A stretch of DNA of 22,578 bases from a virus, in IMG/VR virus record IMGVR_UViG_3300050116_000046, positions 1 through 22,578 of that record; one strand, given 5' to 3'. The position numbers and the translations under genes are program-made. Shown one piece after another: positions 2,611 to 22,578 of the stretch (within the stretch, counting starts at the first letter, position 1; each line of letters opens with the position of its first letter). Under the pieces are notes generated by a model. The model had not been told where the DNA came from and searched no databases. It saw only the letters and a program-made list of their open reading frames with translations.

Positions 2611-2883
2611 ATGACCGACCGGGACCGCCAGGAGTTCACATATGATGGAACCGTCGAGAGCGCCAAGCTCCTGATCGGTTTCATCTGGAACGGCGACTTC
2701 GATACGCTGGTGCCGAAGGAGTGCGGCGACCCCAGGATGGGCAACCAGGTCATCAACACCAACAGCGAGATCCTCACTATCAAGGCCGGCGACGTCGTGC
2801 AGCGGGAAGACTGGGGCGAGACGAACGAGGACTACAACGTCCCAAGATTTCGCTTCGGCATCATCCGCAGGCGTCTGCAATGA
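2611..2883 (+). CDS. Hypothetical protein, 90 aa
   Basis: I do not recognise this protein. It is mixed alpha/beta in character, acidic in the middle and ends in a basic FRFGIIRRRLQ. Its ATG is 6 nt after the previous stop and has only a weak ribosome site, suggesting coupling. Its stop overlaps the large-terminase start as ATGA (2880-2883), so it is probably translated together with the terminase. No motif supports a function. The position just ahead of the large terminase is suggestive of packaging but proves nothing. Confidence 0.7.
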   Translation: MTDRDRQEFTYDGTVESAKLLIGFIWNGDFDTLVPKECGDPRMGNQVINTNSEILTIKAGDVVQREDWGETNEDYNVPRFRFGIIRRRLQ

Positions 2884-5300
2884 GCACTCTCAACACCATC
2901 GACTATACGCCGGCACCGACCATTAATGAGTTTATCAAATCCTACAAGCCAGGGCATCTATTTTATGAGTGGATCGTTGGGCCTGTCGGGTGTCTTGCGC
3001 CGGAGACGCTTGTCCTCACTGAGTCAGGTCCTCGCGCCATCGCCGCAATAGATCGGCCAACGCGCGTTCTATCGTGGAACGCGACGTCATGTCGATACCA
3101 GCTTTCTTGGTGTGGTGGGTCGTTCCTGAAAGGAACGGACTATCTCTACCGAGTGACAATGCAGCGAGGAGAATTTGATGCAGCCGCCCAGCACCAGATA
3201 CTTTGCGCCGACGGTAAGTATCGACGAGTGTGCGACCTGCGGGCGGGTCAAAGCGTTCAAGTATGTTCTTCTTCCCAGCTTCCGACCATAGCGGAACACA
3301 CCCCGCAAGAGTCTCTTGGAGATGCTCCGCGTTGGTTGCGAAATGCCGTAGGTTATCTGGGGCGTTATGCAGATGCAGCCCGTCTTTATGGTCAACGACT
3401 TCTTCAGGAAGAAGGTAGCGGTTTAGCTTTCGCTCCATCACCAAGCGGTGTTCAAACATTAACTTCGTTTCACGACGGGTTCGTTGACGAGCGTAGGGAT
3501 GATCGGGCGGAGCTGTCACGATTACGTAGCCGTCCCGATCAATTCTCCGTCCGGACACAAATTGATGGTTCAGCGCTCCCAGCCCACCACCCTCTCGTCG
3601 GCGGGGCAGATCGAGACGCAACATCACCTTTCTCACAGATCGCGGGTTTTCTCCGAGGAGAGTTGCGATCTCGATGGATGATCGCAAGCCGTCGCATAAA
3701 GCAATTATTTTTTCGATCTCGAGACGCCGCATCTCATTACTCCGGAACCGACGGGTCAATACTACGAATCGAGCGTCGTGATGTCAAGCAGGAATTTTGG
3801 GACCTTCAGGTTTTAGACACACACAATTACGTCACGGTGGATGGTTGCGTGCATCACAACTCAGGCAAGACCACCGCGCTGTTTATGAAGCTGGTCTACA
3901 TGGCCATGTTGCAGCAGCCGAGTCCTGACGGCGTCCGGCGCACCAAGGCTGTCGTCGTGCGCAACACCGCGCCGCAGCTTAACGACACCACGCTTGCGTC
4001 ATGGTTCTACTGGTTCAAGCCAGGGCAGGCCGGCGACTGGCACGCGACCGACAAACGCTTCGTGCTGCGCTTCGGCGACGTCGAGTGCGAGGTGCTCTTC
4101 CGGCCACTCGATACGCCGCAGGACGTGGCGCGCGTGCTGTCGCTCGAAGTCACCTTCGTCATCATCGACGAGTTCGTGCAGATCCCTAAGGAGATTGTCG
4201 AGGCGCTCTCCGCACGTTGCGGACGCTACTTTCCCGACAAGGGCGGCAAGGGCGCGACCAACTGGGGCATGTGGGGGTCGAGCAATCCCGGCACCGAGGA
4301 CAACTGGTGGTTCGACCATCTGCACGATCAGCGGGTCGTGCGGCGCTGGGTGCCTGTGCTCGAAGATCCCGATGCGCGCGTCATGCAGCGCGCCATGGAG
4401 GCCGGCCGCCACGAGGACCCTGAGGGCACCAAGATCAACGAATGCTATTACAAGCAGCCCAGCGCCTTCGATGACGACGCGGAGAACTTGGAGAACTTGC
4501 CGCCGTATAAAGTCGGCGATCGGTCCTATTACAACGACGTCGTGAAAGGTAAATCGGATGACTGGATCAAGCAGTTCGTCGAGTGCGAGTGGGGCTATTC
4601 AATTGCAGGTAAGGCCGTCATCGCCGGATTCAAACCCCTCCGGCACATCTCGAAATCACCACTTCGCTACAACCATCATCTCCCGCTGGTGGCTGGCTTC
4701 GATCCCGGACTCGCCGGATCTGCTCTCGTGTTCGGGCAGCAGGACCTCCACGGACGACTACTCATCTTGGGAGAACTCGTGCAGGAGAACATGGGTTCGG
4801 AGCGAATTATTTCTGAACGTTTGAAGCCATTCATGCGGCGCGTCTTCCCGCAGTGCCAGAACCTGATTATCGCCTCCGACCCGGCCGGCAACAACCGCAG
4901 CGCCGGCAACGAGCAGGAGATCCTCCGGCCCTTCAAGGACAAGTATCAGGTCGTAACCGAGAGCAATAATCGGCTCGCGCTGCGCGTCGATTCGCTCGAC
5001 TACTTTTGCGGGTTCAGCCCAGCCACTGTCGACTCGGGGCTGCTGATCGACGAGCAGGCATGCCCTATCGTCATTCGTGCGCTCAAAGGGGGCTGGCGGT
5101 TCGCGATGGACACCAAGAAGGACCAGATCCGAGGCATCACCCCGGAGAAGAATGCATGGTCCCACCCCGGCGACGCCACTGGCTACCTTGCAAGATATTT
5201 CCGGCGTGAATCAGACCGAGAGTTGCGCTATGGCGCTGGAACGGCTAATAAGAGGTTCGTCCCGCCCCGTAAATGGGGTCCGGCCTACCATCAGGTCTGA
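2880..5300 (+). CDS. Terminase large subunit, intein-containing precursor
   Basis: This is the ATP-driven DNA-packaging motor and headful or site-specific nuclease. The precursor is 806 aa, and removing the intein (residues 38-327) leaves 516 aa, normal for the family. The P-loop is split by the intein: GPVG (34-37) joins SGKTT after splicing, giving GPVGSGKT. Walker B is FVIIDEF with D430 E431 in precursor numbering. The RNase H-like nuclease domain shows D608 in GFDPG, D667 in ASDPAG and D765 in HPGDATGY. The start overlaps the previous stop as ATGA, and the next gene, portal, begins two bases after the stop. Because the intein sits in the ATP-binding loop, the unspliced protein should be inactive, so packaging depends on protein splicing. 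Confidence 0.95.
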   Translation: MSTLNTIDYTPAPTINEFIKSYKPGHLFYEWIVGPVGCLAPETLVLTESGPRAIAAIDRPTRVLSWNATSCRYQLSWCGGSFLKGTDYLYRVTMQRGEFDAAAQHQILCADGKYRRVCDLRAGQSVQVCSSSQLPTIAEHTPQESLGDAPRWLRNAVGYLGRYADAARLYGQRLLQEEGSGLAFAPSPSGVQTLTSFHDGFVDERRDDRAELSRLRSRPDQFSVRTQIDGSALPAHHPLVGGADRDATSPFSQIAGFLRGELRSRWMIASRRIKQLFFRSRDAASHYSGTDGSILRIERRDVKQEFWDLQVLDTHNYVTVDGCVHHNSGKTTALFMKLVYMAMLQQPSPDGVRRTKAVVVRNTAPQLNDTTLASWFYWFKPGQAGDWHATDKRFVLRFGDVECEVLFRPLDTPQDVARVLSLEVTFVIIDEFVQIPKEIVEALSARCGRYFPDKGGKGATNWGMWGSSNPGTEDNWWFDHLHDQRVVRRWVPVLEDPDARVMQRAMEAGRHEDPEGTKINECYYKQPSAFDDDAENLENLPPYKVGDRSYYNDVVKGKSDDWIKQFVECEWGYSIAGKAVIAGFKPLRHISKSPLRYNHHLPLVAGFDPGLAGSALVFGQQDLHGRLLILGELVQENMGSERIISERLKPFMRRVFPQCQNLIIASDPAGNNRSAGNEQEILRPFKDKYQVVTESNNRLALRVDSLDYFCGFSPATVDSGLLIDEQACPIVIRALKGGWRFAMDTKKDQIRGITPEKNAWSHPGDATGYLARYFRRESDRELRYGAGTANKRFVPPRKWGPAYHQV
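3016..3732 (-). CDS. HNH homing endonuclease encoded antisense to the intein
   Basis: This is a 238-aa protein on the strand opposite the intein. Residues about 5-45 (EIEKIIALCDGLRSS ... SVRKVMLRLDLPRR) form a helix-turn-helix. There follow the typical GRRIDRDGYVIV strand, EHRLVMERKLNRYLLPEEVV (H95), DHKDG (H115) and N123/N127 before RHFATNAEHL, which together are a complete HNH_3-type nuclease core with intact catalytic and metal residues. The segment VPLWSEAGKKN near 146-156 is also usual for the family. ATG 3732 is preferred over TTG 3759: GGAG lies 7 nt upstream, and TTG 3759 falls inside the -10 of a strong promoter. The canonical domain ends near residue 161 (base 3250). The last ~75 residues are antisense to the intein's N-terminal splicing blocks and are probably read-through extension. 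Confidence 0.85.
   Translation of the reverse strand: MRRLEIEKIIALCDGLRSSIEIATLLGENPRSVRKVMLRLDLPRRREGGGLGALNHQFVSGRRIDRDGYVIVTAPPDHPYARQRTRRETKLMFEHRLVMERKLNRYLLPEEVVDHKDGLHLHNAPDNLRHFATNAEHLQETLAGCVPLWSEAGKKNILERFDPPAGRTLVDTYRRRKVSGAGRLHQILLAALSLGRDSPFLSGTTHHTKKAGIDMTSRSTIERALADLLRRWREDLTQ
3759..3787 (-). promoter_or_regulatory. Promoter for the antisense HNH gene
   Basis: On the minus strand a perfect TTGACA (3782-3787) is followed by 17 nt and TAGTAT (3759-3764). Transcription would begin around 3752, giving a leader of about 20 nt that contains the GGAG of the HNH gene (3740-3743). The element is embedded in intein codons just ahead of block F. It lets the endonuclease be made early by host RNA polymerase, independently of the rightward operon. 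Confidence 0.75.
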
Positions 5301-7725: not shown

Positions 7726-8220
7726 ATGAGCCACATCATTGATCTTCTTGGAAAACGATTCGGTCGATTGATTGTTGTGCATCAGGCTGCGTCTATGGAT
7801 GGCGGGGCTGCTGCATGGGGACGTGTCTGTGATTGCGGCGCATCTGTTGTTGTCAAGTCATATCGTTTGCGAGTTGGGAAGACTAGGTCGTGTGGGTGTT
7901 GGAGAGTAGATAACGCTCGTGTTCAATTCACCACGCACGGGATGAAGCGTACACGCACTTATCGAACATGGATGAGTATGAGCAATCGATGTAGGGATCC
8001 GAATGGCAAAAACTTCCATTACTATGGTGGGCGCGGCATCGCGGTTTGCGAACGTTGGCGAAAATTTGAGAACTTCCTAGCGGATATGGGAGAACGTCCA
8101 GATGGTCGGACGTTAGACCGCAGAGACAATGATCGCGGATACGAACCAGACAATTGTCGTTGGGCGACTCTTATCGAGCAACGACGTAACCAACGGCGGT
8201 ATGTTCCGCCCAGTAATTGA
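7726..8220 (+). CDS. Free-standing HNH-type homing endonuclease
   Basis: This 164-aa protein belongs to the common phage family that starts with LLGKRFGRLIVV. It then has a zinc-knuckle-like pair CDCG...SCGC (residues about 45-65), TYRTWMSMSNRC, YGGRGIAVCERWRKFENFL, DMGERPDGRTLDRRDND and GYEPDNCRWAT. The last elements carry the catalytic core. The family acts as an intron-less mobile nuclease that nicks or cleaves related phage DNA and spreads its own gene. Base composition is visibly less GC-rich than the portal and scaffold genes on either side, consistent with separate acquisition. Its ribosome site is weak. It is not of the same subfamily as the antisense HNH in the terminase intein. It interrupts the portal-scaffold pair without damaging either gene. 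Confidence 0.9.
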   Translation: MSHIIDLLGKRFGRLIVVHQAASMDGGAAAWGRVCDCGASVVVKSYRLRVGKTRSCGCWRVDNARVQFTTHGMKRTRTYRTWMSMSNRCRDPNGKNFHYYGGRGIAVCERWRKFENFLADMGERPDGRTLDRRDNDRGYEPDNCRWATLIEQRRNQRRYVPPSN

Positions 8221-21365: not shown

Positions 21366-22578
21366 ATGGCCCGGAGCTATTCTGACATTTGGATGGCGAC
21401 CGGGCCAACAGGCCCGACAGGCACTCGCGGTCCTATAGGACCGGCTGGCGGCCCTACCGGACCCACCGGGGCTACCGGTGCTCCCTCATCCGTAACCGGC
21501 CCCACAGGCCCCTCCGGAGCGACAGGAAATGGACCAACAGGACCGACCGGAGTCAGTGGCCCCACAGGTAGCCAAGGCACGCCTGGAGGCGATGGCGGCG
21601 TTGGTCCGACTGGGCCAACTGGACCCACCGGGTCTGATGGCGCTGTTGGCGATCAGGGACCTACCGGACCTCAAGGAACGGATGGGCCGACTGGCCCTAC
21701 TGGTGACGGCGGCTCAGAGGGTCCCACTGGGCCAACCGGGCCAGGCGTTGGTGATCCCGGCCCCACCGGACCAACTGGCGCTGACGGGACCCAAGGATTA
21801 ACCGGCCCGACAGGCCCAACAGGAGCACAAGGTGATGGCGGGGATCAAGGACCCACAGGACCAACTGGACCTGGCGGAACTACAGGCGTTGAAGGTCCCA
21901 CAGGCCCAACAGGAGCAGGCCCTACGGGACCGACTGGCGCGGGCGGATCTACAGGCGCAGAGGGACCGACAGGACCTACGGGACTTGAAGGCCCGACTGG
22001 ATCGGACGGTAGCACTGGAGCAGGAGGCCCGACAGGACCTACAGGCCCGACGGGCACTGGCGGTAGCACTGGCGCTGGAGGTCCAACGGGCCCAACTGGA
22101 ACTGGCGGAACTACGGGCGCTGAAGGTCCCACAGGACCCACGGGTGCGGGTGGAAGCAGCGGCATCGAAGGCCCCACCGGCCCCACGGGAGCTGGACCCA
22201 CAGGACCTACTGGTGCTGGCGGCGGTTCGGGAGCAGAGGGACCGACCGGCCCCACAGGAGCAGGTGGGAGCGCAGGAGCTGAAGGACCTACGGGACCGAC
22301 TGGATCTGGTGGAGGCACAGGTGCGGGAGGTCCGACGGGTCCAACAGGCGTATCCGGTCCGACCGGACCCACTGGCCCGACGGGTCTAGCGAACGCAGCG
22401 CCGCTGGTCATTGCCAACGGTGTGGTCTTCGAGGTCGCAACAAACACTCAGGTTCTGACCGACACACCGGTCTACATCCAGGCGGGTGGTCAGCTTTACA
22501 CGCAGGGCACTGGCGTTCTTATCAACGAGGTGCCGGTCTTGTCTGGTTTCGTCGGTCCTACCGGCCCGGCAGGCCCCG
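21366..22578 (+). CDS. Collagen-like tail fibre or spike, 5' part
   Basis: The frame opens at ATG 21366 ([19 protein letters not shown]) and stays open to the window edge: 404 complete codons, C-terminus missing. Residues about 11-340 are Gly-X-Y triplets, with about 20 copies of GPTGPTG spaced by variable linkers such as GAGGSTGAE and GTGGTTGAE. From residue 341 a non-collagen segment of ~55 residues ([20 protein letters not shown], then [19 protein letters not shown]) interrupts, and GPTGPAGP resumes at the edge. Collagen-like repeats form triple-helical shafts in phage fibres. Thr-rich Y positions replace hydroxyproline. GAAGAAGG lies 13-20 nt upstream, somewhat far. ATG 21393 is an alternative without a ribosome site. 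The receptor-binding tip is expected downstream of this window. Confidence 0.88.

What the first reader, a model, noticed from the sequence alone, without database searches (positions are those of the whole stretch)
3759..3787. Consensus promoter for the antisense gene hidden in intein codons
TTGACA, 17 nt, TAGTAT on the minus strand lies 27 bases upstream of the HNH start, with GGAG between. A full consensus -35 at optimal spacing at exactly this place is unlikely to be chance, and it overlaps codons just before splicing block F. It implies that the nuclease is expressed by host polymerase and opposes terminase transcription, so it may also act as antisense control on the late operon.
Basis: partly seen in the sequence, partly recalled or inferred. 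Interest (0 to 1): 0.75.

Follow-up and report, generated by a model that had tools for sequence, protein, structure and literature searches.

The report
Self-regulating nuclease gene hidden inside intein
Inside a self-splicing insert in a phage's DNA-packaging gene, the opposite strand carries a DNA-cutting enzyme gene whose promoter is written into the insert's codons and is followed at once by a near-copy of the enzyme's likely own target, which suggests that the enzyme switches itself off.

Summary
The hexamers are real: minus strand TTGACA (3787-3782), 17 nt, TAGTAT (3764-3759), 26 nt before an ATG with GGAG. In the window alone the site is not compelling (p 0.085 when the intein protein is kept and codons are redrawn). 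Comparison makes it so. In all 105 loci where the profile found this HNH (duplicates included) it lies antisense, in one phase, inside a terminase-gene intein. A sigma70-type site sits at the same place in 46 of 62 distinct regions, perfect in four; third-base choice favours it (z 10.7 in 47 clusters; z 6.2 in 14 held-out clusters).

New point: the ~26 bp after the -10 are an imperfect copy of the intein insertion (homing) site in the terminase P-loop codons. The copy follows its own host's extein at codon positions 1+2 (309/384 vs 250±7.5 permuted; held-out 118/192 vs 96±5.4) and ignores position 3. This suggests DNA recognition by the HNH protein, hence autorepression as reported for I-TevI. 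In six GGAG-host clusters the promoter moved 16 bp and the copy stayed.

No transcript or binding data exist here.

The parts
3782..3787 (-). -35 hexamer TTGACA, opposite intein codons D-V-K
   Evidence: Val codon GTC in excess, 33 observed vs 13.4 expected, z 6.9 in 47 clusters
3759..3764 (-). -10 hexamer TAGTAT, opposite intein codons I-L
   Evidence: third base A giving the first T of the -10 in excess, 32 vs 12.4, z 6.9
3733..3758 (-). Proposed operator: imperfect copy of the homing site, positions -12 to +14 around the insertion point
   Evidence: Covaries with own extein; in the window 11 of 12 codon-position-1+2 bases match over -12..+6, tied best of all positions on both strands, the other tie and the listed 10/12 matches lying at 21.6-22.4 kb in a repeat gene; 14 of 27 bases in all match
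3740..3743 (-). Shine-Dalgarno GGAG, within the operator
   Evidence: a ribosome-binding-like stretch precedes the start in most homologues
3016..3732 (-). HNH endonuclease gene, 238 aa, ATG start, antisense to 239 of 290 intein codons
   Evidence: phrog_10730 E 5.6e-51; HNH residues invariant; codon-position pattern; model mean pLDDT 85.5
2991..3860 (+). Intein, 290 aa, from Cys1 to Asn before Ser+1
   Evidence: Pfam Intein_splicing E 1.4e-5, 25.4 bits, below Pfam's cut-off of 35.8; C...HHN|S
2880..5300 (+). Terminase large subunit gene interrupted in its P-loop (GPVG | SGKTT)
   Evidence: phrog_979 E 8.7e-7; intein-free relative GPVGSGKS in phage Rollin
2979..2990 (+). N-extein half of the homing site, GGGCCTGTCGGG (GPVG)
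3861..3875 (+). C-extein half of the homing site, TCAGGCAAGACCACC (SGKTT)

Best explanation
A mobile intein sits in the P-loop of a phage terminase gene and encodes its own HNH homing endonuclease on the opposite strand. A sigma70-type promoter for that gene is written into intein codons just before splicing block F (shown by comparison). Directly downstream of the -10 lies a ~26-bp imperfect copy of the endonuclease's presumed target, the P-loop codons at the intein insertion point (shown by covariation). Inferred: the endonuclease binds this copy as an operator and represses its own transcription, as I-TevI does. The copy lacks the target's Lys-codon AA (+7, +8) and its +2 base, which may be why it is spared from cutting. 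Repression would limit nuclease toxicity and antisense transcription through terL.
For: Antisense HNH in one phase in 105 of 105 loci with an HNH match, HHN[STC] in all 105 frames. Promoter at one place in 46 of 62 regions, z 10.7 over codon-redrawn sequences, held-out z 6.2 in 14 clusters. Homing-site copy: 309/384 vs 250.1±7.5 at codon positions 1+2 and chance at position 3 (39/192 vs 46.3) in 48 clusters; held-out 118/192 vs 96.0±5.4; near-relative pairs 22 for, 5 against, 2 ties. GGAG hosts: promoter moved 16 bp, copy kept. HNH under selection as a protein. Precedent: I-TevI operator, PMC2988022, passages and section 10 read.
Against: No RNA or binding data. The window site alone has p 0.085. 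Of 66 clusters counted as intact, L001, L085, L094 and L100 have neither promoter nor copy, and 8 of 66 fall below each threshold. Some -35 boxes are poor (L017 TTGCGC). Permutations ignore relatedness; the pair test only partly corrects this, and its 19 closest pairs give 13 for, 4 against, 2 ties. C-extein side is weaker in pairs: 19 for, 8 against, 7 ties, p 0.026. The cut site and target of this HNH are inferred, not measured.
Confidence: 0.74

Rival explanations
1. The promoter is real and the HNH protein recognises the copy, but the outcome is not repression: it could titrate the enzyme, block sense transcription of terL as a roadblock, or be a weak cut site.
For: Covariation shows recognition at most, not its effect.
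Against: The copy abuts or overlaps the promoter in the clusters that have both, and stays with it when the promoter moves, as an operator would.
Confidence: 0.15
2. The leader copy works as RNA: the HNH transcript carries sense P-loop sequence, and the terL-intein transcript carries its complement, so pairing could control translation of terL or of the HNH gene.
For: The copy lies in the predicted 5' leader (inferred).
Against: Position-3 bases match the own extein only at chance (39/192 vs 46.3; held-out 18/96 vs 20.3), so pairing would be broken at about every third base.
Confidence: 0.04
3. One reading: the promoter's main role is antisense control of the late operon.
For: The promoter points against terL.
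Against: Codon pattern shows the HNH protein itself is selected, and the site has an SD and start for it; nothing here tests late transcription.
Confidence: 0.04
4. No promoter: intein residues and shared ancestry alone produce the hexamers.
For: The protein alone gives 7.19 of 12 at this place; window alone p 0.085.
Against: Third-base excess falls on hexamers and leader much more than on block F codons; held-out clusters repeat it, and GGAG hosts show a displaced promoter.
Confidence: 0.03

Closest known systems
I-TevI autorepression in phage T4 (I-TevII and I-TevIII proposed)
   Same: Mobile-element endonuclease with its own promoter overlapped by an operator that resembles its homing site and lacks part of it (PMC2988022, passages and section 10 read).
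   Different: I-TevI is a GIY-YIG enzyme in a group I intron, read in the host gene's direction from T4 late promoters. Here an HNH enzyme lies antisense inside an intein, with a host-type promoter and operator inside protein-coding codons. Binding and repression are not shown here.
ShiLan domain, hidden HNH in a phage methylase
   Same: HNH gene overlapping an open frame of the host gene (PMC11855218, abstract, discussion section and passages read).
   Different: Same strand, another frame, no self-splicing domain and no RBS reported; how it is expressed is left open there. Here the opposite strand, a recognisable intein, promoter and SD.
Inteins in terminase P-loops of mycobacteriophages
   Same: Intein inserted in the Walker A motif of TerL (PMC5050341, passages read).
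   Different: The TerL1-a site there lies between Lys and Thr; here the insertion is before Ser of GPVG|SGK. Passages read do not mention antisense genes (0 occurrences of antisense).
T4 segD
   Same: Homing endonuclease gene reversed among late genes (PMC2988022).
   Different: Free-standing, no promoter found, not overlapping a host frame.

Membership tests
sigma70-type promoter | -35 and -10 near TTGACA/TATAAT, about 17 bp apart | tested here: met
   10 of 12 in the window; same place in 46 of 62 regions, four perfect
sigma70-type promoter | kept beyond coding need | tested here: met
   z 10.7 and held-out z 6.2 over codon-redrawn sequences
sigma70-type promoter | mapped transcript start | not testable with these tools
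   no RNA data
Intein | N-terminal Cys, block B and F, C-terminal HN followed by Ser/Thr/Cys | tested here: met
   CLAPETLV at 2991, FWDLQVLDTHNYV and VHHN|S; Pfam Intein_splicing matched below its cut-off
Intein | intein-free homologue with the exact empty site | tested here: met
   phage Rollin TerL GPVGSGKS
Intein | protein splicing shown | not testable with these tools
   needs experiment
HNH endonuclease | conserved HNH motif residues | tested here: met
   E94 H95, H115, N123, N127 invariant in 38 sequences, D114 in at least 90%; phrog_10730; Pfam HNH_3 below cut-off
HNH endonuclease | cuts or nicks the intein-free site | not testable with these tools
   needs experiment
I-TevI-type autorepressor | homing-site-like operator at its own promoter | tested here: met
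I-TevI-type autorepressor | protein binds and represses with little cutting of the operator | not testable with these tools
   bases +2, +7, +8 of the target almost never present in the copy (6, 6, 7 of 48) fits but does not show it
I-TevI-type autorepressor | member of the same protein family (GIY-YIG) | tested here: not met
   HNH family; works like I-TevI, is not a relative
ShiLan-type hidden HNH | same strand as host gene, no splicing domain | tested here: not met
   opposite strand in 105 of 105 loci, intein motifs present

The most novel reading that the evidence does not exclude
A widespread family of phage inteins carries its homing endonuclease on the opposite strand, and one stretch of about 70 bp is read three ways: as intein codons, as a host-type promoter, and as a decoy copy of the homing site through which the endonuclease switches itself off. 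When the element lives in a terminase with a different P-loop, recognition, operator and intein residues have changed together.
Probability: 0.65. Interest if true: 0.87.

Novelty: new variant of a known kind. Interest (0 to 1): 0.82.

Why it matters
It suggests how an endonuclease hidden on the wrong strand of an essential late gene can be expressed and kept in check, a question that PMC11855218 leaves open for hidden HNH genes. It would extend homing-endonuclease autoregulation from group I introns to inteins. It also gives a natural record of specificity change: operator and P-loop change together across terminases (GPVG, GPFG, GPIG, GGAG, GGFG, AGYG), which points to the bases the enzyme reads. 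And it is an extreme overlap: splicing domain and nuclease on complementary strands over 239 codons, with regulatory signals in between.

Tried and rejected
Chance promoter: rejected on comparison, not on the window alone.

Hairpin in the 5' leader: judged by eye on the output; the possible short stem had no consistent partner changes, so the homing-site copy was tested instead. RNA pairing of leader and terL: position-3 bases match only at chance.

The first automatic search for the homing-site copy scored all 27 bases, wobble included, and gave mixed results: in many loci the best match within the intein lay elsewhere, and the script took a wrong Cys in some rows (for example L001, L003, L022, L079). 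re-anchored the sites and separated codon positions; one search is not used for counts.

Control of homologous inteins without an antisense HNH: none among the 80 viral loci kept. The one distant hit without it, L188, showed no splice end in the same script and was not used. Partial control: six clusters with a shortened HNH have lower operator scores (Mann-Whitney p 0.015) but not clearly lower promoter scores (p 0.09).

Fold search against PDB: no match with E below 0.3. Sequence search of solved structures: only a short match to residues 6-46, E 5e-7. Rfam: nothing in the window. Genome contigs: one relative. Plasmids: one partial relative.

Dropped rows: L106 (copy of the window); L027 (no HNH by profile); L024 and L061 (contig starts inside the intein, no N-extein); duplicates with identical intein C-terminus; six loci without a nearby HN anchor (L087-L090, L093, L099), restored. 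Of 209 viral relatives only the best 80 were held, and 80 of 111. L092 (HNH matched from residue 33 only) was counted as intact.

Full report
OBSERVATION. The minus strand at 3787-3759 reads TTGACA, 17 nt, TAGTAT. GGAG is at 3743-3740 and the ATG at 3732. The HNH ORF runs 3732-3016 on the minus strand. It lies inside an intein, 2991-3860 on the plus strand, which interrupts terL (2880-5300) between GPVG and SGKTT of the P-loop. The HNH gene covers 239 of 290 intein codons. Phage Rollin has a related TerL without the intein, reading GPVGSGKS.

IS IT CHANCE? With intein residues fixed and codons redrawn from the same ORF, the window's own site has p 0.085. That alone is weak. So I collected relatives by the HNH protein and by the intein N-terminus.

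ARCHITECTURE. In all 105 loci where the profile found the HNH (duplicates included; L027 gave no match, L106 was left out as a copy of the window) it is antisense to a long open frame, in one phase. All 105 frames hold HHN followed by S, T or C; L024 and L061 were set aside only for lack of the N-extein. Searching by the intein instead, 80 of 80 viral loci had an antisense HNH match, 39 already known and 41 new; nine of the new ones match only from profile position 61 or later, so the gene looks shortened there. In the linker zone, HNH third positions, which are intein second positions, change most: 0.191 per codon against 0.028-0.033 in close pairs. Opposite intein blocks A-B, changes are low at all positions, 0.014-0.041. 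So the HNH is selected as a protein, the intein linker is largely a passenger, and both frames are held over blocks A-B. The AlphaFold2 model (mean pLDDT 85.5) has a helix-turn-helix-like start (residues 3-39), the HNH region, and a helical C-terminal part that is the one encoded opposite blocks A-B.

PROMOTER. Of 62 distinct intein C-terminal regions, 46 have their best sigma70-like site at the same place with a 17-nt spacer; four are 12 of 12 (L057, L062, L079, L083). In 47 clusters (80% identity), over all offsets and spacers of 15-19, the greatest excess over codon-redrawn sequences is at this place with spacer 17: 8.45 against 7.19, z 10.7; spacer 15 with the same -35 gives 10.3. The z-scores elsewhere have sd 2.2-2.6 because the sequences are related, so the true margin is smaller than z suggests. 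Third-base excess lies on hexamer codons (z 5.3-6.9) and on the leader (up to 8.9). Codons of block F show little, except the Tyr/Phe codon before Trp and its neighbour (z 5.4 and 4.1). Fourteen held-out clusters gave 8.07 against 6.67, z 6.2.

OPERATOR. The 12 nt after the -10 read, codon by codon, like the last four extein residues before the intein. In 48 clusters they match the own extein at codon positions 1+2 in 309 of 384 cases, against 250.1±7.5 when exteins are permuted (p 5e-5, the least that 20,000 permutations allow). At position 3 the match is 39 of 192 (46.3 expected). The match peaks at this offset, 6.44 of 8; the mean over offsets is 1.82 and the next best 3.75. Twenty-four held-out clusters: 118 of 192 against 96.0±5.4, p 5e-5; position 3 at chance, 18 of 96. 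Per position, the own match exceeds permutation at -11, -9, -8, -6, -5, +4, +5, +13 (32 of 48 vs 14.0±2.9) and +14 (29 of 48 vs 16.2±2.8); +2 (6 of 48), +7 (6) and +8 (7) almost never match the target. Nearest relatives with different exteins, paired: 22 for, 5 against, 2 ties, p 0.0008; of the 19 pairs at distance up to 1.0, 13 for, 4 against, 2 ties, counted from the same listing. The pairs are not strictly independent paths on the tree. The C-extein side is weaker: 19 for, 8 against, 7 ties, p 0.026. In the window, 11 of 12 position-1+2 bases match over -12..+6, and CCNGTNGGNTCNGG occurs once in the window, at this place.

BOTH TOGETHER. In 66 clusters counted as having an intact HNH, 58 have an operator score of 6 of 8 or better (small shifts allowed), 58 have a promoter of 8 of 12 or better at an allowed place, 54 have both; L001, L085, L094 and L100 have neither. 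In six GGAG-host clusters the promoter stands 16 bp further downstream (10.50 vs 6.74 expected, z 5.8), so that the copy lies in its spacer. Codon needs at one spot do not explain that easily.

MECHANISM. Shown by sequence: the gene, a conserved promoter-like site, the SD, the homing-site copy and its covariation. Inferred: the HNH protein recognises the P-loop codons while tolerating wobble changes; it binds the copy and represses its own promoter. A review (PMC2988022; passages and section 10 read) reports that I-TevI binds such an operator as well as its target, represses its promoter, and cuts the operator about 100-fold less. The copy here lacks the target's Lys-codon AA, which may play that part; the cut site is unknown.

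NOVELTY. Searches of the open PMC library for antisense or opposite-strand endonucleases in inteins, terminase inteins with HNH, and autoregulated endonucleases listed no paper whose title or abstract start describes this arrangement; I read only the listings except for PMC2988022, PMC11855218 and PMC5050341 (parts). Subscription journals are not held. The parts are known one by one, so I call it a new variant of a known kind.

Right on the site and on expression from a host-type promoter; the late-operon control is open; the homing-site copy was not seen.

Noticed in passing
window 21405-22567, minus strand: GGNCCNGTNGG, the N-half of the homing site, occurs 31 times in the window (0.86 expected), 29 of them here, on the complement of a collagen-like repeat stretch. 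These half-sites could titrate the endonuclease.
   Followed up: partly
window 7726-8220, plus strand: A second, unrelated HNH gene (phrog_374, E 4.9e-58) between the head-tail adaptor-like gene and the genes before the major head protein.
   Followed up: no
L002 (Pseudoalteromonas phage PHS3) and L001 (Pectobacterium phage Sabo): Public annotation splits the PHS3 terL into two terminase genes around the HNH and calls the Sabo one a hypothetical protein, with no HNH annotated; both are single open frames with the intein.
   Followed up: yes
L122, L129, L153, L156, L158, L160, L175, L186, L187: Inteins in which the HNH profile matches only from position 61 or later; seven of the nine have a splice end found and measure 203-226 aa. 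Possible stages of endonuclease loss.
   Followed up: partly
L087, L093, L099: HNH proteins whose N-terminal helix-turn-helix-like segment appears twice; intein longer.
   Followed up: no
L001, L085, L094, L100: Lineages that keep the antisense HNH but lack both the promoter and the homing-site copy; how they express the gene is unknown.
   Followed up: no
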